DNA from: a virus
DNA: 64,000 bases
IMG/VR virus record: IMGVR_UViG_3300043570_002836
Location: 32,512-96,511 of that record
Reading direction: 5' to 3' (one strand)
Part shown: piece after piece, positions 5,194 through 29,226 of the stretch
Numbering within the stretch: the stretch's first letter is position 1
How the letters are laid out: each line of letters opens with the position of its first letter
Notes under the pieces: generated by a model
The model's input: the letters and a program-made list of their open reading frames with translations, nothing else
Told to the model about the DNA's origin: nothing
Databases searched by the model: none
Translations under genes and position numbers: made by a program

Positions 5194-6087
5194 TTATTTA
5201 ATCATTCTATTTTTTTTAACTTGTCCCATAAAAAATCTAAATCCGTCAGATTTTGCTTCAGGGTCATCAGATGGGTCTGGGTCATCAAAAGGGTCAAAAT
5301 CAGGTTTTGGTGTAATTGTCGGTGCTGGTTTTGTACCAGGTTTAGGTAATACTTCAGGATTTCTAGCTTCAGGGTCGTCAGATGGGTCTGGGTCATCAAA
5401 AGGGTCAAAATCAGGTTTAGGTGTGATTGTTGGTGCAGGTTTTGTACCAGGTTCAGGTAAAACTTCAGGTGACTCCATAATAGTTCTAATGAAATCTTTC
5501 TTAGTCATTTTAGGAAAAATCGAATTTTCAATAATTTGTGAAAATTCATCTTCTAAAATACTTTCCCATTTTAAACTTGGTTTAATGTCGGCAATTTTAT
5601 TACCCATGTTTTTGTTTGATGCTTTACCAATCATATCCATATAACCACCTTCTTTAGTTTCCACTTTTTTAGGTAATCCTTTATGTTTAGTTGATGCAAA
5701 ATCTTTAACGTCTTTCTTAGACATTTCTTTAGCGGCTTCACCCGCTTTACCTTTTTTAGGTGTTTTACCTTTTTGCATACTTCTAACAACACCAAAAAAT
5801 TCTTGTTGTTTTTTAGATACTGATTTTTCATTTACTTCATCTTCACGAATTTCTTCTTCATATGTTACAAAAGGTTTTTTTTCGGATTTTGCTTTATTAA
5901 TTGAAACCATATCAGTTTTTGGTATGTTCAATGTTTGTTCTTTAACAGTTTTTCTCTGTTTAACCAATCTTACGTGTAAGTGATTAATTTGAGATTCGTT
6001 AAGAGACATAACCAAAGATGGTTTTAACCCATAACCAATTAAGCTCAATTTTTTTTCGTTAGTTTTCATATACAACTTTTTTTTCAA
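5194..6087 (-). CDS. Hypothetical protein with two Pro/Asp-rich tandem repeats
   Basis: A 297-residue unknown. The N-terminal half is basic and helical. Residues ~210-280 hold two almost identical ~35-residue repeats built from PEVLPxPGTKPAPTI, then TPKPDFDPFDDPDPSDD (bases about 5255-5460). Just before the repeats is the segment MTKKDFIRTIMES, which looks like the amphipathic tag ending in I-x-E seen elsewhere in this genome. The start overlaps the neighbouring 136-residue gene by 29 bases. Function unknown; position suggests a head or packaging component. Confidence 0.6.
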   Translation of the reverse strand: MKKKLYMKTNEKKLSLIGYGLKPSLVMSLNESQINHLHVRLVKQRKTVKEQTLNIPKTDMVSINKAKSEKKPFVTYEEEIREDEVNEKSVSKKQQEFFGVVRSMQKGKTPKKGKAGEAAKEMSKKDVKDFASTKHKGLPKKVETKEGGYMDMIGKASNKNMGNKIADIKPSLKWESILEDEFSQIIENSIFPKMTKKDFIRTIMESPEVLPEPGTKPAPTITPKPDFDPFDDPDPSDDPEARNPEVLPKPGTKPAPTITPKPDFDPFDDPDPSDDPEAKSDGFRFFMGQVKKNRMIK

Positions 6088-6469: not shown

Positions 6470-7791
6470 AGTAATTTAAAACCACCTTTAGTCGATACTT
6501 TTAATCTTTTATCTTCAACTTCAAACACGATGTCTTTACCAACTGTTTTACCTACTAATTTAGCCGTAGGGTATTTGCTTAAAACTTTAGCTGACGCTGC
6601 CTCTTGAGATTTACTCTCAGAAAGTTTTTGTATTTTATTAAATGTAGTTTCTTTTCTTTGTACGTTTTCTTTAACCAATTTTTTTGTTGGTTTAAAATAT
6701 TTACCTAATACTCTATCAACACTTGATTCAGAAAAAAGACTTTCAATCATGTCCTCAACTTGGAATGATTCGTCATCACTCATTTCATCGTGGTGAATTC
6801 TTCTACGTCTCGAACCTCTTGGTTTGAAATCTTCTTCTTCATCTTCTTCATCATCATCAAAGTTAAATCCTTCGGCCATTTCAGGTTCAGGTACTGCAGG
6901 TACTTCAGGTTCTAATTCTTCACCTTCTTCATCACCCATTTCATCACCCATTTCAGGTTCTTCCATATCCATGTCCATATCATCACCTTCTTCGTCATCA
7001 CCAAGACCTTCCAATTTGTCTAAGATATCTTCTTTATCTTCTTCTTCTAAGTTATTTAAATCTAAAGCCGATAATACAGAATTGATAACGTACTTAATAT
7101 CTTTTGATGGCATTTCATTTTCTTCGTCAGATAAAAACGTTCTAATTTTTTGTCCTAATTTTCCTGTGATTTTTTGAATTGATTTAAAAGTAACAACTTC
7201 ATCCTCATCATCTTCAGGTTCTTCCATGTCCATATCGTCTTCCATATCCATATCCATGTCTTCATCACCCATTTCAGGTTCAGGTAACTCTTCACCTTCA
7301 GGAGAAGGAATTGCCGAAGGGTCGGGAGCAGGTGCGGGTGCGGGAGCTGGTACAGGTGCGGGAGCTGGAGCGGGTGCCGCTTGTTCATCAGTTTCACCAC
7401 CACCTGAATTTAATTTTAAATAATATTTCATTTCCTCATCTTCACTTTCAAACAAAGAAACGTTTTTGTCGTAACCTTCGTTAACATTCACTTCTTTAGC
7501 GATTAAGTTTAATCTTTTAAATGCTTGTGAATATGAAGAATAGTATTTTCTATTTTTCATCGGTTCAATATAATCAGTCGATTCGTTCAAACCTTTTTTG
7601 ATTACATATCCGTTACGCTCTTTATCAATACGATAAGTATTTCCATCCGCCAAAGTAATAGTGTACTCAACAGACTTATCTTCATTTAGAGGTTTTGGTA
7701 TATTCTCTTTATATCTCGCAATTTCCATAATACGATTTATTTTAGCTAAACCTTCTAGTTTTTCACTACCAATTGGTCTTATTTTTCCCAT
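6466..7791 (-). CDS. Acidic low-complexity structural-block protein
   Basis: A 441-residue protein with a recognisable phage-type opening (MGKIRPIGSEKLEGLAKINR) and two very acidic Met/Asp/Glu tracts (about residues 170-205 and 270-310), an Ala-Pro repeat (about 138-158) and a basic patch GSRRRRIHH (about 328-336). The C-terminus is a small folded-looking domain (KLVGKTVGKDIVFEVEDKRLKVSTKGGF). This is probably the first gene of the transcript running to the portal: upstream lies a TATTTAT element and no further gene for about 75 bases. Highly acidic, disordered proteins near portal genes are often scaffold or core proteins; that role is only inferred. Confidence 0.6.
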   Translation of the reverse strand: MGKIRPIGSEKLEGLAKINRIMEIARYKENIPKPLNEDKSVEYTITLADGNTYRIDKERNGYVIKKGLNESTDYIEPMKNRKYYSSYSQAFKRLNLIAKEVNVNEGYDKNVSLFESEDEEMKYYLKLNSGGGETDEQAAPAPAPAPVPAPAPAPAPDPSAIPSPEGEELPEPEMGDEDMDMDMEDDMDMEEPEDDEDEVVTFKSIQKITGKLGQKIRTFLSDEENEMPSKDIKYVINSVLSALDLNNLEEEDKEDILDKLEGLGDDEEGDDMDMDMEEPEMGDEMGDEEGEELEPEVPAVPEPEMAEGFNFDDDEEDEEEDFKPRGSRRRRIHHDEMSDDESFQVEDMIESLFSESSVDRVLGKYFKPTKKLVKENVQRKETTFNKIQKLSESKSQEAASAKVLSKYPTAKLVGKTVGKDIVFEVEDKRLKVSTKGGFKLL

Positions 7792-7868: not shown

Positions 7869-8621
7869 TTAATATCTAAACTCTTTTAACGTAAGTTTTT
7901 TATCCGTTAGTTCATCTTTTAAATTTCTTATTTTTTCTAAATACCCATTTCTTCTTAGTACTTTGAAGACCAAATTTTCTTCGGAATATTCACCATCTTT
8001 TTGTAATCCACAAGTACGGTATTTTCTAAGTTTTTCATTATACTTATCAATCAGTTTTTTGGACTCATCAAAATCTTCATCTTTAACATTATCAACAAGA
8101 TTATCAATGATGTTCATCCATTGTTGTGATTTTGATTTAATTTTACCGTGATTGATATCAACAGTTTCACTAACAGGTGTCTCAACCCATTCGTCATTTA
8201 AGATTGAATATTTAGCGATACTCTTAACCTCATTTACCATAGACTCATCTTCAACATATAATTCAACTTCATAACCATAGATTGTGATATCGTGTTTTTT
8301 ATTATAAATTGTTTTCTTTAATTTGAATAAGTCCTCATATAAAGGTTTTTCTGAATTATTAAATTGTGAAAAATCCGCTAAGATATGTATATCAACATCT
8401 GAGTAATCGGACCAATTATAATTTGCCAATGAACCTGACATTATAATATCAGATATTACAAGATTCACATCTAAAAATTCAATAAAATCATTACCAATTT
8501 TTAATAATCGTTCTCTAACTTTTGGTTTCATGGTATAACTACCATTTGTTTTTTCCCAAATGTCAGTATTTAAAGTTTCCTTTAATTTGAAACTTTTTAA
8601 TATTTTACGAAAGTCACTCAT
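7869..8621 (-). CDS. Nucleotidyltransferase (Pol beta-like fold)
   Basis: A 250-residue protein with the signature of the DNA polymerase beta-type nucleotidyltransferase superfamily: a GS motif at residues 63-64 (SGSLANYNWS) followed by SDVD at 74-77 supplying the metal-binding aspartates, and a third acidic residue likely in the YEVELYVEDE strand (about residues 136-145). Such enzymes add nucleotides to RNA, protein or small molecules. The substrate cannot be read from the sequence. The C-terminus is charged and helical. The gene has a TATTTATTA element immediately before its start and stands alone between two tag- or KTSC-type genes, suggesting late expression. Confidence 0.8.
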   Translation of the reverse strand: MSDFRKILKSFKLKETLNTDIWEKTNGSYTMKPKVRERLLKIGNDFIEFLDVNLVISDIIMSGSLANYNWSDYSDVDIHILADFSQFNNSEKPLYEDLFKLKKTIYNKKHDITIYGYEVELYVEDESMVNEVKSIAKYSILNDEWVETPVSETVDINHGKIKSKSQQWMNIIDNLVDNVKDEDFDESKKLIDKYNEKLRKYRTCGLQKDGEYSEENLVFKVLRRNGYLEKIRNLKDELTDKKLTLKEFRY

Positions 8622-9440: not shown

Positions 9441-11477
9441 ATGATTGAATCTGTAGAAAATAGTGGTAAAGGTAAAAAAGGTGATTCATCAACTCCTGTT
9501 TTAGATAACTTTAGTCGTGATTTAATTAAATTGGCTGAGGAGGGTAAATTAGACCCTGTAATCGGTCGTGATAGGGAGATTAATAGAATCGCCCAAATTT
9601 TATCAAGACGTAAGAAAAATAACCCAATTATTATTGGTGAACCAGGTTGTGGTAAAACTGCGATAGTTGAGGGATTGGCGATTAAAATTTACAACAACGA
9701 ATGTCCAAGAAATTTAATGGATAAAAAAATCGTATCGTTAGATATGACTTCAATTGTTGCAGGTACAAAGTATCGTGGTCAGTTCGAGGAAAGGATGAAA
9801 GTAATTATTGAAGAATTACAAACAAACCCAAACATTATTGTATTCATTGATGAGATACATACAATTGTTGGTGCTGGTAATTCATCAGGTTCAATGGATG
9901 CGTCTAATATCTTTAAACCCGCATTAGCAAGGGGTGAGATTCAATGTGTCGGAGCAACAACATTAGATGAATACCGTAAAAACTTTGAGAAAGACGGAGC
10001 GTTAGAAAGACGTTTCCAAAAAGTTATTGTTGACCCAGCGACCAAAGAAGAAACTTTTGAAATTCTTAAAAACGCTAAAGACAAATATGAAAATTACCAC
10101 AAAGTAGTTTATAGTGATGAGGTATTAACATTGTGTGTTGATTTGGCGGAAAGATATATTACGGATAGAGAATTTCCTGATAAGGCGTTTGACATCTTAG
10201 ATGAGGTTGGGGCTCGTAGTCAAGTTGAAGTTAAAATTCCTGATGAAATTGAGAAACTTAAATTAGAAGCTCTTGATATTAAACAAGAAAAATTGGATGT
10301 TGTAAAACGTCAAGATTACGAAGAGGCCGCTAATCTAAGAGATAAAGAAAAACGTATTCTAAACAAATTAGAAACTGAGAAAAAGAAATTTGAGGAAGAA
10401 CTAAATCAACAACGTAAAGAAATTAGTACTGAACTTGTTTATGACGTAGTTTCAAACATGACCAAAATTCCAATTTCTAAATTAAACGCTGATGAGACAA
10501 AATCATTAAGTGAAATGGAAGGTAATTTAAATGATAAAGTTATTGGTCAACCTGAAGCGGTTTCCAAAATTGCTAAATCAATTAGACGAAATCGTTTAGG
10601 GATTAAGGACCCGAACAAACCAATTGGCTCATTTATTTTCCTTGGTTCAACAGGTGTTGGTAAAACTCACTTAGCAAAACAATTAGCCAAACAAATTTTT
10701 GGTACTGAAGATGCGTTAATCAGAATTGATATGTCGGAATATCAAGAGAAACATAATATCTCAAGATTAATCGGTTCACCTCCAGGATATGTTGGTCACG
10801 AAGAAGGGGGACAATTAACCGAACAAGTTAAAAACAAACCTTACTCAGTGATTTTATTTGATGAGGTTGAGAAAGCGAACAAAGATATTTTCTCAACATT
10901 ACTTCAAGTACTAGATGATGGTCACTTGACAGATAGTTTAGGTAGAAAGATTAATTTCAAAAACTGTGTAATCATTATGACTTCAAATATTGGGGTTAGA
11001 AAATTACAAGATTTTGGAACAGGTATCGGATTTGGAACATCGGCAAAAACTTATGTTGAAGAAGAACAAAAACGTGATATGTTGAAAAAAGAACTTCAGA
11101 AGTTTTTCGCTCCTGAATTCTTAAACCGTATTGATGAGATTGTTGTATTCAAAAGTTTAAATCGTGAGGATGTTAAGAAAATAGTTCTATTGGAAGTTGA
11201 AAGATTACAAAAACGTTTAACAGGATTAAAATACAACTTCACATTTGACGAATCCGTTATTGATTTAATTTCTGAGGTTGGTTACGATGAAATATACGGT
11301 GCAAGACCTTTGAAAAGAGCTATCCAAGATAAGATTGAGGATTATATCTCAGAAGAAGTGTTGAAGGGTACTTTAGTGGAGAATGTTTTATACCGATTAA
11401 TTGTGATTGATAAAGAAGTTAAAATTGAAGAAGATAAACCTGTAAAAAAAGGTAGAAAGAAAAAGGGGGTTGAATAA
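9441..11477 (+). CDS. clpC: ClpC-type AAA+ unfoldase lacking the Clp N-domain
   Basis: A 678-residue Hsp100 ATPase. Two AAA+ modules are complete: the first has Walker A GEPGCGKT (about 66-73) and Walker B VFIDEIHT, the second has LGSTGVGKT and ILFDEVEK. Between them is a UVR-like segment (RQDYEEAANLRDKEKRI), which marks the ClpC rather than ClpA or ClpB lineage. A loop containing IGF (FGTGIGFGT) lies where ClpP-docking loops sit, so it may work with host ClpP; no clpP is visible here. The ~140-residue N-terminal adaptor-binding domain is missing, which should alter substrate choice. The gene stands alone on the plus strand and ends in its own terminator. Likely acquired from a Bacteroidota host. 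Confidence 0.93.
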   Translation: MIESVENSGKGKKGDSSTPVLDNFSRDLIKLAEEGKLDPVIGRDREINRIAQILSRRKKNNPIIIGEPGCGKTAIVEGLAIKIYNNECPRNLMDKKIVSLDMTSIVAGTKYRGQFEERMKVIIEELQTNPNIIVFIDEIHTIVGAGNSSGSMDASNIFKPALARGEIQCVGATTLDEYRKNFEKDGALERRFQKVIVDPATKEETFEILKNAKDKYENYHKVVYSDEVLTLCVDLAERYITDREFPDKAFDILDEVGARSQVEVKIPDEIEKLKLEALDIKQEKLDVVKRQDYEEAANLRDKEKRILNKLETEKKKFEEELNQQRKEISTELVYDVVSNMTKIPISKLNADETKSLSEMEGNLNDKVIGQPEAVSKIAKSIRRNRLGIKDPNKPIGSFIFLGSTGVGKTHLAKQLAKQIFGTEDALIRIDMSEYQEKHNISRLIGSPPGYVGHEEGGQLTEQVKNKPYSVILFDEVEKANKDIFSTLLQVLDDGHLTDSLGRKINFKNCVIIMTSNIGVRKLQDFGTGIGFGTSAKTYVEEEQKRDMLKKELQKFFAPEFLNRIDEIVVFKSLNREDVKKIVLLEVERLQKRLTGLKYNFTFDESVIDLISEVGYDEIYGARPLKRAIQDKIEDYISEEVLKGTLVENVLYRLIVIDKEVKIEEDKPVKKGRKKKGVE

Positions 11478-13534: not shown

Positions 13535-13564
13535 TTGGTCTTTTCATTTTTTCCCCTATATTTG
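13535..13564 (+). promoter_or_regulatory. Bacteroidota-type promoter for the tmRNA
   Basis: TTG at 13535-13537, a 19-base spacer, then TATATTTG at 13557-13564, matching the TTG / TAnnTTTG pattern of the Bacteroidota primary sigma factor. Transcription should start some 25 bases before the mature tmRNA 5' end. Confidence 0.75.
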
Positions 13565-13596
13565 TATTAATAAACAACGAAAGTTCTTTGATTTAT

Positions 13597-13980
13597 GGGG
13601 ATAACTTGGAATTGACTGGCATTGTTAATTATTCGGGGCACGCAGTGAGAAGATTCCTATCACTTAAATCTATGGTGTCAAATTTCAAACGGAGACGTTT
13701 TAGACAAAATGGAAGTTATCGGATTAATCCGTACTTCTGAAGTTACTGTAGCCTAATAGCAAACGGAAACGCGGGTCGGTGAGCATATAACCAAGGAACA
13801 GAAGCTCTTACAAAGACGGAAAAACGATTGAGTCCGTAAATCGAATTGTCCATTGGTTGTTAGTTTACGATGGTGAAGAACAAACTTACTATTTTTGGAA
13901 CATTAGAAAATGTTATCCTAAGCGTGTAGTCCTTAGTCTTTAAGGTGTACAAGACGCGGGTTCGACTCCCGCTATCTCCA
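13597..13980 (+). ncRNA. ssrA: tmRNA (SsrA), with an unusual 21-residue tag
   Basis: A one-piece tmRNA of about 384 nt. The 5' end GGGGATA pairs with TATCTCC at 13973-13979 to form the acceptor stem, and the T arm (GCGGG TTCGACT CCCGC, 13956-13972) is exact. A GGGGATAACTTGGAATTGACTGG opening is the tmRNA counterpart of the usual GGGGxxGAAAxGGxTTCGACxGG. CCA is not encoded. The tag frame starts at GGA (13691), the usual Bacteroidota resume residue, and reads GDVLDKM...RTSEVTVA (21 residues) to TAA TAG at 13754-13759; tandem stops support this frame. The tag is longer than typical and ends in VTVA instead of ALAA. It rescues stalled ribosomes and marks the peptide; degradation could involve the phage ClpC. 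Confidence 0.93.
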
Positions 13981-14008
13981 CTTTTAACCCTATCTCCACA
14001 CAAATAAA

Positions 14009-15601: not shown

Positions 15602-15626
15602 ATCCCACTTTTTAGGGTGGGATTTA
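15602..15626 (-). terminator. Terminator of the giant RNA transcript
   Basis: On the minus strand AATCCCACCC and GTGGGATT pair around a CTAAAAA loop and are followed by TTTTAG and T-rich sequence. It lies about 25 bases beyond the tRNA-like 3' end and would terminate the transcript started at about 16.6 kb. Confidence 0.75.
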
Positions 15627-15649
15627 CTTTACTTTTTATCAATGTGTTG

Positions 15650-15724
15650 TAGCATCGGACTGGAATCGAACCTGCTTGAGTCGGCTTATGAGACCGATGA
15701 AATACCTTACCTCCCCCCTGCTAT
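15650..15724 (-). tRNA. tRNA-like element with CAU anticodon at the 3' end of the giant RNA
   Basis: The anticodon arm TCGGT CTCATAA GCCGA (anticodon CAU) and the T loop TTCGATT are clear. The acceptor stem (GCAGGGG with CCGATGC) has two central mismatches and the T stem has an A-A mismatch, so it is weaker than the tRNAs at 24-29 kb. It could be a tRNA-Met or Ile2 gene, or a tRNA-like domain of the large RNA that ends here. Confidence 0.5.
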
Positions 15725-15725
15725 A

Positions 15726-16610
15726 TATAAAAAAACGTTGAGATTACACGTATTATTGAGAACCTTTGGAAGGATTATTGTTTCCCTTCGTATCCACTTT
15801 CTTTTGAAAAGTATTCCTCAGTGTCGGTTTTTTAGGTGAACCACTCCTTGAGACATCAACTACTCTCTCATTACTTAACTCTCTTCGAGAATGCCTTCCC
15901 GACTAATCCTTGCGAGATTAGAGGTATTTGGTAAGAATATAGGTCAACTTGCGGTATTCCTATGCAATGAACAACTCATTACTATGTAGACACCTTTCGT
16001 TGATATCTGACGGACACTTTTGCTTTATAGTTATAAATGTTACTTCATTTCCTTAAAGTTTTTTGTGTTGTGGATGAATCAAAGCAGTGGTCCGTCTTTC
16101 AGATTCGTCGTCTTTTGAACAACGAAATACCAAACTACTCTGTGAAGTATCCCTACCTCAATATTTTAAGATTACTTCGAGATTATTCTTTTGGTAAAGA
16201 ATTATCAAGGAAAATTTCAGCACCACCTGTTTGTTTTCATACCTTTCGGTTTTAAGCCACCTTTTATAATGGAATACGCAATAATAAAATTGGATAATCT
16301 TATTTTTCACAAAATTCCTACGAGTTATTCCTATTAGAGTTCCCTCCTCAATCTGATGACCCACATCACCAAATCATATAACCACTTTCTCTACATCGTT
16401 GACCTCGATACTAAAGGTTATACGGTATCCCGCTTGTGTACTCGACCTCGGTTTCCCAAGACGCAAATCATTTACACTCATGACTCACTTTATCCTACTT
16501 TCGTAGTTTATTTTATGGACTATACACGGCCCAATATCTTTATCAGTTTCATTACTTACTCCTGAACGGATAATCAATTTTTCAAAGAACGTCTCGGACA
16601 TTTCCGATTT
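15726..16610 (-). ncRNA. Giant structured noncoding RNA (GOLLD/ROOL-like candidate)
   Basis: A stretch of nearly 900 bases without a plausible gene but with dense RNA structure on the minus strand. Visible stem-loops include CTAC-GAAA-GTAG (16495-16506), CTTGG-GAAA-CCGAG (16446-16460), ACC-GAAA-GGT (16241-16250) and CTAATC-TCGCAAG-GATTAG (15903-15921); three have GNRA tetraloops. Two strong host-type promoters lie just upstream (16617-16758) and a terminator just beyond a tRNA-like end (15602). Phage-borne RNAs of this size next to tRNAs are known as the GOLLD and ROOL classes; size, setting and a tRNA-like 3' end fit best with GOLLD, but I cannot match a consensus by eye. RNase P RNA was considered and not supported. 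Confidence 0.65.
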
Positions 16611-16616
16611 GTTTTA

Positions 16617-16647
16617 CAAAGTTACGACTTTACTTTTGTTTTGTCAA
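16617..16647 (-). promoter_or_regulatory. Proximal promoter of the giant RNA
   Basis: On the minus strand TTGAC (16643-16647), then a spacer, then TAACTTTG (16617-16624); counting from TTG the spacer is 20 bases. Excellent match to the Bacteroidota TTG / TAnnTTTG pattern. Confidence 0.8.
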
Positions 16648-16727
16648 GTACCTTGTGAACTTTTTTTTGAGGTTTAGGAAACTCAACGTTTTATAACAGA
16701 TTGTCAACCTTTCCCTCATTTGTTTTA

Positions 16728-16758
16728 CAAACTTACGACATTCATATTTGTTTGTCAA
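16728..16758 (-). promoter_or_regulatory. Distal promoter of the giant RNA
   Basis: On the minus strand TTGAC (16754-16758), then TAAGTTTG (16728-16735) with a 20-base spacer after TTG. It repeats the layout of the proximal promoter about 110 bases away, including the following TAAAACAAAT, so the pair looks like a duplicated promoter. Confidence 0.75.
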
Positions 16759-18845: not shown

Positions 18846-18872
18846 TAAAAAAAAGTCCCGAAGGACTTCTTT
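18846..18872 (-). terminator. Terminator of the RNA-ligase operon
   Basis: On the minus strand AAGTCC-TTCG-GGACTT is followed by a run of T. It overlaps the end of the RNA ligase gene. Confidence 0.8.
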
Positions 18873-19906
18873 TATTTCTCGTTAAGTAAGAATTGATTAC
18901 TAATGGATTTAAAACTTATTGTTCTATCGTAAGAACGAACAACAACACCTTCTCGTCCAAAATTAGAATTTAAGTTAGAAGGACTTTCGGCGTATTCTAA
19001 CATATTGTCAATTGAATTAGGTAAATCAAAATCAAAATCTAATATTGGCACTGTAGTTAATCCAAATTTTTGAGTTATCTCAGTAAATTGTAAGAATGGG
19101 ATGTTTTCTTGTGTATCAATATTGAACCCGTTGAAAAATCTTACAGTCTGTCCTTTAATTTTGTAAGGATTACCTTGAACACCTTCACCAATTAATTCAC
19201 CTTGTAAACATACGTTAAATCCTAATGTTTTTAACTTATCCTCAAGTTCTAACTCTCTAGCAACTTTCCAAAATGTATTATCATCAGTTTCAAGTAATTC
19301 TAAGTTACGGGAACATACACTAAACACCTCATCTTTCACGTAGAATGTTGCTGAAGAACCATCTAACTTTTCAGTCACGTAAAACTTCATCCCCAATTTA
19401 TTTTGGGTTCTGTATTTTTCGTAATCAGACGCCAAATTTTGAACTCTTTCTTCATCAGTCTTACGGATGAAAGATGGGAACAAACCTTTAACTTTACCAG
19501 CCAAAGATGCTGGAATTGGTGGTTCGTATTTAACAATGTCCAACATTTCAGTAACATCTAACCCTTCAAATGGGGTTACGTTAATGTTTGCATCAGGTGG
19601 GTTTAATACTACAATAGGTAAAATCAAACCTTGAGATACTTGACCTCGTAATCTTATAGTTTTCAAACGGAAACCTTCTTGGTCACCCATTTTTTTGAAT
19701 GAAGTTTTTCTTAAAAATTCAAATTCTTCACGAATTGGTAAGAACGAATCTACTTCACAGTAAACAATTAAATCACCTACTTTGTGATTCACATCTTTAG
19801 CAACAACAACTTTCCATCCGTCAATTGTTGCAAGTTCGATTTTATCGGCCCCCTCAATTGGTTGGATGTTACTTATTTTTCTAACGGTTGCTAATTTTCT
19901 TTCCAT
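18872..19906 (-). CDS. RNA ligase (DRB0094/Rnl5-like)
   Basis: A 344-residue nucleotidyltransferase ligase. An N-terminal OB-like domain (residues 1-110, ending RLRGQVSQGLILPI) precedes the catalytic core: nucleotidyl-accepting Lys180 in motif I (TEKLDGSS), motif IIIa-like LQGELIGEG, motif IV REGVVVRS and motif V ISFKS near the C-terminus. The N-terminal OB arrangement is that of the Deinococcus DRB0094 ligase group. It seals RNA, probably nicked tRNA, which suits the nearby tRNA array and cREC protein. The start overlaps the preceding small gene by 26 bases. Confidence 0.88.
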   Translation of the reverse strand: MERKLATVRKISNIQPIEGADKIELATIDGWKVVVAKDVNHKVGDLIVYCEVDSFLPIREEFEFLRKTSFKKMGDQEGFRLKTIRLRGQVSQGLILPIVVLNPPDANINVTPFEGLDVTEMLDIVKYEPPIPASLAGKVKGLFPSFIRKTDEERVQNLASDYEKYRTQNKLGMKFYVTEKLDGSSATFYVKDEVFSVCSRNLELLETDDNTFWKVARELELEDKLKTLGFNVCLQGELIGEGVQGNPYKIKGQTVRFFNGFNIDTQENIPFLQFTEITQKFGLTTVPILDFDFDLPNSIDNMLEYAESPSNLNSNFGREGVVVRSYDRTISFKSISNQFLLNEK

Positions 19907-20247: not shown

Positions 20248-20916
20248 TTACCCAACAACATTTAACATTTCATCAGTGTGGTGGTCCTTTTCAATCTCTG
20301 AATGGATTGGTTGTTTATTTAGCAACGGAACCAACTCTCTCATCAGGTGGTATGGTCTAAATTCTAAGTGACCATCAATACCAGCATCAATTCGTTTTCC
20401 TTTACCCAACCTTTTATTGTTAGGTAAGTGACAGTGACCGTGTAAGTGCATTGCACCTTTACGTAAGTTATTCCACGAGTCAATCGGGTAGTGCATCAAT
20501 TGAATTTCTATTTTACCGATTTTTAATGTGTTATAGTGTGACACACTTGTAAATAATTCTTGAACCTCATCACGGTTATTTTCAATATGGTGGTCGTGGT
20601 TTCCAAGGATTAAATGTATGTTTTTACATATAACTCTATCTCTGAATTTTTGAATAGATTCAAATCCCCCAAAAGACCAATCACCTAAGTGTATTAAAAT
20701 ATCATCCTCTTTAACAATACTGTTAATGTTGTTAACAATAGTATCATTCATTAAATCCAAATTTTTGAAATCACGAGTTTCGTTAATTGGAACTGAACCA
20801 TCAGGTTTTCTCCAACTAGTAGTCCCACGACAAATGTTCGCATGATTGTAGTGTGTGTCCGATGTTACCCAAACATCAGGAAATTCTCCTTTTTTATTTG
20901 CTATAATTTTAATCAT
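20248..20916 (-). CDS. Calcineurin-like metallophosphoesterase
   Basis: A 222-residue phosphoesterase. Metal-binding motifs in order: SDTHYNH (about 19-25), LGDWSFGG (about 77-84), GNHDHH (about 103-108), a His in MHYPID, and LHGHCH (about 157-162). The family cleaves phosphoesters in nucleotides or nucleic acids. Its placement with RNA ligase and the cREC protein suggests end-processing, such as 2',3'-cyclic phosphate removal, but the substrate is not decided by sequence. It overlaps the upstream gene by 4 bases. Confidence 0.88.
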   Translation of the reverse strand: MIKIIANKKGEFPDVWVTSDTHYNHANICRGTTSWRKPDGSVPINETRDFKNLDLMNDTIVNNINSIVKEDDILIHLGDWSFGGFESIQKFRDRVICKNIHLILGNHDHHIENNRDEVQELFTSVSHYNTLKIGKIEIQLMHYPIDSWNNLRKGAMHLHGHCHLPNNKRLGKGKRIDAGIDGHLEFRPYHLMRELVPLLNKQPIHSEIEKDHHTDEMLNVVG

Positions 20917-25091: not shown

Positions 25092-25141
25092 GTTTACTTC
25101 TATTCCAATACGTCAATGAACTCTTGTTCTGTTTTGTCTGA

Positions 25142-25172
25142 CAAATCTAATACTTTTATTTTGATTTGCCAA
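25142..25172 (-). promoter_or_regulatory. Host-type promoter upstream of tRNA-Leu(UAG)
   Basis: On the minus strand TTG (25170-25172), 20-base spacer, TAGATTTG (25142-25149). Same layout as the promoter at 24.9 kb. Confidence 0.75.
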
Positions 25173-29155: not shown

Positions 29156-29198
29156 GTATTTTTATCTTTACCAATATGTCAAAGAACTTTTCATTTTA

Positions 29199-29226
29199 CA
29201 AAGTTACATTTTTTATTTTGTAACTT
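29199..29226 (-). promoter_or_regulatory. Promoter at the head of the tRNA array
   Basis: On the minus strand TAACTTTG at 29199-29206, identical to the -7 box of the giant-RNA promoter, with a weak GTTAC-like -33 about 18 bases upstream. Confidence 0.6.

What the first reader, a model, noticed from the sequence alone, without database searches (positions are those of the whole stretch)
15602..16758. Giant structured RNA with tandem strong promoters and a tRNA-like end
About 960 nt from promoter to terminator without a gene, with several GNRA-capped hairpins, two near-identical consensus promoters 110 bases apart, and a tRNA-like CAU domain before the terminator. Size and context match the rare phage-associated GOLLD/ROOL RNAs, whose function in infection is unknown. 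It may be a divergent member or a new class.
Basis: partly seen in the sequence, partly recalled or inferred. Interest (0 to 1): 0.82.

Follow-up and report, generated by a model that had tools for sequence, protein, structure and literature searches.

The report
Phage GOLLD RNA with rRNA-like leader
This stretch encodes a known kind of giant phage RNA (GOLLD, which assembles into hollow RNA cages); what appears new is that in phages of Bacteroidota it starts with the same promoter-plus-boxA leader that bacteria use for ribosomal RNA, and the phage's transfer-messenger RNA and tRNA arrays start the same way.

Summary
It is neither a new class nor rare: pattern scans of IMG/VR gave about 210 loci. 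Its 5' domain, which Rfam does not model, is shared by 178 of 180 of those loci tested. In 36 diverse full-length sequences, 148 of 191 predicted pairs show compensatory changes (at most 7 after column shuffling). The two promoters are Bacteroidota-type (TTG-N20-TAnnTTTG). The CAU domain is a degraded tRNA-Met-like element (16.6 bits, cut-off 29); many relatives have an intact tRNA-Met there. New here: after the promoter lie a hairpin and a boxA-like GTTCTTTGAAA, exact in 126/155 GOLLD leaders against 1/2649 control stretches. In the window this element heads GOLLD, the phage tmRNA and both tRNA arrays, and host rRNA leaders carry it. I conclude that the phage makes its stable RNAs with an rRNA-type antitermination leader. 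What the RNA does beyond cage assembly stays unproven. The tmRNA, convergent with GOLLD in 71/73 loci, encodes an unusual conserved 21-residue tag.

The parts
16728..16758 (-). distal Bacteroidota-type promoter TTG-N20-TAAGTTTG
   Evidence: 59 of 155 related loci have two such matches within 300 nt
16617..16647 (-). proximal Bacteroidota-type promoter TTG-N20-TAACTTTG
   Evidence: such a promoter within 250 nt in 139/155 GOLLD loci, 5% of control stretches
16594..16607 (-). leader hairpin TCGGA-AATG-TCCGA
   Evidence: the stem varies with pairing kept in relatives
16580..16590 (-). boxA-like element GTTCTTTGAAA
   Evidence: exact in 126/155 leaders, 1/2649 control stretches; the only exact copy in the window
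16143..16543 (-). GOLLD 5' domain (not covered by the Rfam model)
   Evidence: 79 of 105 pairs have compensatory changes
15735..16142 (-). GOLLD 3' domain
   Evidence: RF02032 1-416/416, 315.3 bits; 69 of 83 pairs have compensatory changes
15651..15721 (-). degraded tRNA-Met(CAU)-like element; by reading, acceptor 5/7 and T-stem 4/5 pairs
   Evidence: 16.6 bits, cut-off 29; relatives in the same place 27-62 bits
15600..15625 (-). intrinsic terminator
13597..13983 (+). phage tmRNA, convergent neighbour; promoter 13535-13564, boxA-like GTTCTTTGA 13583-13591
29179..29206 (-). TAnnTTTG plus boxA-like GTTCTTTGACATATTGG at the head of tRNA array 1
25113..25149 (-). TAnnTTTG plus boxA-like GTTCATTGACGTATTGG at the head of tRNA array 2 (tRNA-Leu first)

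Best explanation
The feature is a GOLLD RNA of a large phage of Bacteroidota. Shown by sequence: a full GOLLD core (5' and 3' domains) is headed by two Bacteroidota-type promoters, a small hairpin and a boxA-like site, and is followed after 13 nt by a tRNA-Met-like element and a terminator. Inferred: host RNA polymerase starts at the promoter; the nascent boxA recruits the host NusB-S10 complex as in rRNA operons, so the long untranslated transcript escapes Rho and folds with the help of the antitermination complex. In relatives with an intact 3' tRNA, RNase P would cut the GOLLD 3' end free; here the degraded tRNA may stay on as a tail. The RNA then assembles into a nanocage like the published GOLLD 14-mer. 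The same kind of leader drives the phage's tmRNA and tRNA arrays, so GOLLD most likely belongs to a co-regulated stable-RNA programme that acts on the translation apparatus during infection.
For: Rfam 315 bits over the full model; 148/191 pairs with compensatory changes against at most 7 in column shuffles. Promoter in 139/155 loci against 5% of controls. boxA in 126/155 leaders against 1/2649 controls, then tested on sets not used to find it: phage tmRNA leaders 51/53 against 2% in shuffles, host 16S leaders 8/13 against 1.7%. In the window promoter + boxA occurs five times (0.47 expected); four are the heads of tmRNA, GOLLD and the two tRNA arrays. The tRNA-array versions continue like host rRNA leaders. 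Cage structure of GOLLD env-38 and ribosome pull-down: PMC12286853.
Against: No expression data. No test of NusB-S10 binding or antitermination. Cage formation was shown for another GOLLD, and one prophage GOLLD is dispensable for phage production (cited in PMC7567579). GOLLDs of Acinetobacter phages and streptococcal prophages show no boxA upstream, so boxA is not needed for GOLLD as such.
Confidence: 0.78

Rival explanations
1. A GOLLD RNA as described, but GTTCTTTGAAA is not an antitermination site: it is an element of the initially transcribed region that stabilises the RNA or marks it for processing, for example by RNase III at the hairpin.
For: The element always lies close behind the promoter, and no binding data exist.
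Against: It matches the boxA of rRNA leaders in sequence and place, also in host genomes, and it occurs in tmRNA and tRNA-array leaders without the GOLLD hairpin.
Confidence: 0.15
2. GOLLD is mainly a carrier or maturation scaffold for the tRNA-Met at its 3' end; the cage shields or delivers that tRNA.
For: tRNA within about 27 nt of the 3' end in 36/194 loci, 29 of them Met; published idea of cages holding linked tRNAs (PMC12286853).
Against: 158 of 194 loci have no ARAGORN tRNA there, and in this window the tRNA is degraded.
Confidence: 0.1
3. A chance run of sequence without a structured RNA.
For: Only the absence of transcript data.
Confidence: 0.01

Closest known systems
GOLLD RNA (Rfam RF02032), including GOLLD env-38 solved as a homo-14-mer cage (PMC12286853)
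   Same: Full-length model match; two domains of about 400 nt each; variable linker inside the 3' domain; phage-borne; near tRNAs, often next to tRNA-Met.
   Different: Bacteroidota-type promoter, hairpin and boxA leader; conserved convergent phage tmRNA; tRNA-like element after the 3' end rather than in the linker.
GOLLDs of Acinetobacter phages (Herod, vB_AciJM_313; L231, L232)
   Same: 3' domain (E 1e-48 or better) and weakly the 5' domain (E about 6e-6) are shared; a tRNA follows closely in Herod.
   Different: They lie inside large tRNA arrays, and no boxA-like site was found upstream.
rRNA operon leaders with boxA (Nus antitermination)
   Same: Order promoter, hairpin, boxA; motif shared with Bacteroidota 16S leaders.
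   Different: Here it heads a phage RNA; factor binding not shown.
ROOL RNA
   Same: Giant phage RNA near tRNAs that forms a cage (PMC12286853).
   Different: No Rfam ROOL match in the window.

Membership tests
GOLLD RNA (RF02032) | Covariance-model score above the curated cut-off over the full 3' domain | tested here: met
   315.3 bits, cut-off 150, positions 1-416 of 416
GOLLD RNA (RF02032) | Conserved secondary structure supported by covariation | tested here: met
   148/191 pairs with compensatory changes, at most 7 in column shuffles
GOLLD RNA (RF02032) | A 5' domain upstream, total length about 800 nt or more | tested here: met
   5' domain in 178/180 loci tested; core of about 810 nt
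GOLLD RNA (RF02032) | Phage or prophage location near tRNA genes | tested here: met
   Virus contig with terminase; 23 tRNAs at 23.9-28.9 kb
GOLLD RNA (RF02032) | Assembly into a 14-mer cage | not testable with these tools
   Known for env-38 only (PMC12286853)
GOLLD RNA (RF02032) | Transcript that rises during lytic growth | not testable with these tools
   No expression data held
ROOL RNA | Rfam ROOL match | tested here: not met
   None at the cut-off in the window
tRNA-Met (3' element) | Rfam or ARAGORN tRNA call | tested here: not met
   16.6 bits, cut-off 29; no ARAGORN call
rRNA-type boxA leader | boxA core behind the promoter, shared with host rRNA leaders | tested here: met
   126/155 exact in GOLLD leaders; host 16S leaders 8/13 with at most one mismatch, 1.7% in shuffles
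rRNA-type boxA leader | Binding of NusB-S10 and read-through of Rho-dependent terminators | not testable with these tools
   Needs an experiment
tmRNA (neighbour, 13597-13983) | Rfam tmRNA score above cut-off, G3-U70 acceptor pair, reading frame for a tag with stop | tested here: met
   70.9 bits, cut-off 47; GGGGATA/TATCTCC acceptor; tag frame conserved in 71 sequences

The most novel reading that the evidence does not exclude
Phages of Bacteroidota run a dedicated stable-RNA programme: GOLLD cage, tmRNA with a non-host tag, and tRNA arrays are all transcribed as rRNA mimics under boxA antitermination, and the cage acts on the translation apparatus (holding ribosomes, tRNAs or tmRNA) during infection.
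Probability: 0.25. Interest if true: 0.88.

Novelty: new variant of a known kind. Interest (0 to 1): 0.6.

Why it matters
The function of GOLLD RNAs is an open question. This clade adds two testable handles: an rRNA-type leader that predicts NusB-S10-dependent synthesis, and a conserved convergent tmRNA plus tRNA arrays under the same kind of leader, which point to the translation apparatus. It also shows that GOLLD is widespread in phages with Bacteroidota-type promoters, so the RNA could be studied in infection if an isolate that carries it is found. The RNA core itself is an ordinary GOLLD member; the variant claim rests on the leader and the neighbourhood.

Tried and rejected
Sigma-70 reading of the promoters: rejected. 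ROOL, RNase P or a new class: rejected. A functional tRNA at the 3' end: not supported for this window, though it holds for many relatives. Host copies: a pattern scan of 84,980 bacterial and archaeal genomes gave 9 matches; by profile only 3 (Streptococcus) are GOLLD and the other 6 look like chance matches, so no Bacteroidota prophage copy was found. boxA as a general GOLLD feature: rejected, none found upstream of Acinetobacter and Streptococcus GOLLDs. An SSU rRNA family search in six genomes returned nothing, so rRNA leaders were fetched with a 16S 5'-end pattern. My first scan for the Bacteroidota promoter used a wrong spacing (22 instead of 20) and missed both promoters; corrected. A script check of acceptor pairing was off by one base, so acceptor pairs were read by hand. 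The figure 178 of 180 counts loci whose 3'-domain match begins at profile position 5 or less; Streptococcus loci (position 6) fall outside it and lack this 5' domain. No phage or chromosomal protein frame in the window shares the tmRNA tag motif.

Full report
What is there. The stretch 16758-15602 on the minus strand holds, in order: two Bacteroidota-type promoters 111 bases apart, a short hairpin, a boxA-like element, an RNA core of about 810 nt, a short U-rich spacer, a tRNA-like element with a CUCAUAA anticodon loop, and an intrinsic terminator. Rfam's GOLLD model matches 16142-15735 from its first to its last position at 315.3 bits (cut-off 150, E 2e-89); no ROOL match is seen. The window is part of a 96.5-kb virus contig. 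Its terminase matches T4-like large subunits; the nearest records are a huge metagenomic phage and Flavobacterium phages, at 26-29% identity.

Relatives and covariation. A profile built from the window and two uncultured huge phages (634 and 642 kb) found the 3' domain in 210 loci. The 5' domain, which the Rfam model does not cover, is present in 178 of 180 loci with upstream sequence. About 84 loci came in through a 5'-domain pattern, so this share is partly by construction, but the other two patterns targeted the 3' domain only. An alignment of 36 full-length sequences below 85% identity gives a consensus fold with 191 pairs, 148 of which have compensatory double changes (79/105 in the 5' domain, 69/83 in the 3' domain); six column-shuffled alignments give 0 to 7. 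This is a real structured RNA and a full GOLLD.

Promoters and leader. The sigma-70 scan does not find the two promoters. They fit the TTG / TAnnTTTG form used in Bacteroidota (consensus from general knowledge). A TTG-N18-23-TAnnTTTG match occurs within 250 nt upstream in 139 of 155 GOLLD loci and in 5% of control stretches. Between promoter and core, GTTCTTTGAAA occurs exactly in 126 of 155 leaders and in 1 of 2,649 control stretches. In most leaders a hairpin precedes it whose stem changes while pairing is kept (TCGGA/TCCGA, TCAGGA/TCCTGA, TCTCA/TGAGA). The word resembles the boxA core of rRNA leaders (general knowledge).

Because I found the motif by looking at GOLLD leaders, I tested it on other sets. 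Phage tmRNA leaders carry it, with at most one mismatch, in 51 of 53 distinct cases against 2% in shuffles. In 13 Bacteroidota genomes the 200 nt before 16S carry it in 8, against 1.7% in shuffles. In the window, a TAnnTTTG followed by such a word occurs five times (0.47 expected); four of these are the heads of the tmRNA, the GOLLD and the two tRNA arrays. The tRNA-array versions (GTTCTTTGACATATTGG, GTTCATTGACGTATTGG) continue like some host rRNA leaders (GTTCATAGACATATTGG).

The 3' tRNA-like element. In 36 of 194 loci ARAGORN finds a tRNA within about 27 nt of the GOLLD 3' end, 29 of them Met(CAU); on distinct tails it is 27 of 147. Two relatives checked are strong tRNAs (56-62 bits), a sub-clade near the window scores 27-29, and the window 16.6. 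I read it as a co-transcribed tRNA-Met gene that is decaying here. In the huge phages L001 and L002 the RNA lies between two copies of one odd tRNA-like sequence.

The convergent tmRNA. At 13597-13983 (+) lies a tmRNA (70.9 bits). In relatives it lies 115-3,300 nt downstream of GOLLD, on the opposite strand in 71 of 73. Its tag frame, starting at a glycine codon, is conserved in 71 sequences (GNVLNKMETLGLLRGSEVTVA and variants; window GDVLDKMEVIGLIRTSEVTVA), with synonymous changes enriched in that frame (37% against 18% and 6% in the other two). The 24 Bacteroidota chromosomal tmRNAs checked have tags of 9-10 residues, all ending in AA and 23 of them in ALAA, AMAA or RLAA. Phage tmRNAs as such are known (402 of 18,146 phages in PMC9004378).

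Mechanism. Shown by sequence: membership, domains, leader anatomy, neighbourhood. Inferred: boxA recruits NusB-S10 so that the untranslated RNA is made processively and folds under the antitermination complex; the RNA assembles into the cage known for GOLLD env-38 (PMC12286853). A GOLLD of a Lactobacillus prophage accumulates in lytic growth but is dispensable for phage production (cited in PMC7567579), so the benefit is probably conditional. The leader shared with tmRNA and tRNA arrays, and the reported ribosome pull-down (PMC12286853), make the translation apparatus the likeliest target.

Limits. There are no expression data. Loci were found by patterns and include near-identical contigs; counts on distinct sequences are given where made. 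Shuffles for the motif tests keep base composition only. The host phylum is inferred from promoter type, boxA match and terminase relatives, not shown. No paper in the held library contains both GOLLD and boxA, but most subscription papers are missing from it, so priority cannot be claimed.

Noticed in passing
window 13597-13983 (+); relatives such as L008 861-1249, L022 6509-6896: Phage tmRNA with a conserved tag of about 21 residues (window GDVLDKMEVIGLIRTSEVTVA) that ends in VTVA or similar; 24 Bacteroidota chromosomal tmRNAs have 9-10 residue tags ending in AA. The phage may tag stalled products with something other than the usual ClpXP degron.
   Followed up: partly
window 29206-29179 (-) and 25149-25113 (-): Both tRNA arrays of the phage begin with TAnnTTTG plus an rRNA-type boxA (GTTCTTTGACATATTGG, GTTCATTGACGTATTGG).
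   Followed up: partly
window about 29155-29071 (-): A tRNA-Ser(UGA)-like gene, read by eye, right behind the boxA of tRNA array 1; neither ARAGORN nor the Rfam scan lists it.
   Followed up: no
L002 about 5668-5765 and 6863-6960; L001 about 5775-5890 and 6838-6911; L002 7042-7131: In two huge phages GOLLD lies between two copies of a tRNA-Glu-like sequence, some with an insert in the D-loop and an anticodon loop of unusual size. Could be a trace of duplication, or processing signals on both sides of the RNA.
   Followed up: no
window 9441-11477 (+): ATP-dependent protease family (phrog_4871, E 4e-241) close to the tmRNA; a possible partner for the unusual tag.
   Followed up: no
window 18872-19906 (-) and 20248-20916 (-): RNA ligase (phrog_968) and phosphoesterase (phrog_547) genes upstream of GOLLD and beside the tRNA arrays; possibly tRNA repair.
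   Followed up: no
L020 8490-8874: ARAGORN calls a tmRNA that overlaps the GOLLD pattern match at 8538-8560; probably a false call.
   Followed up: no
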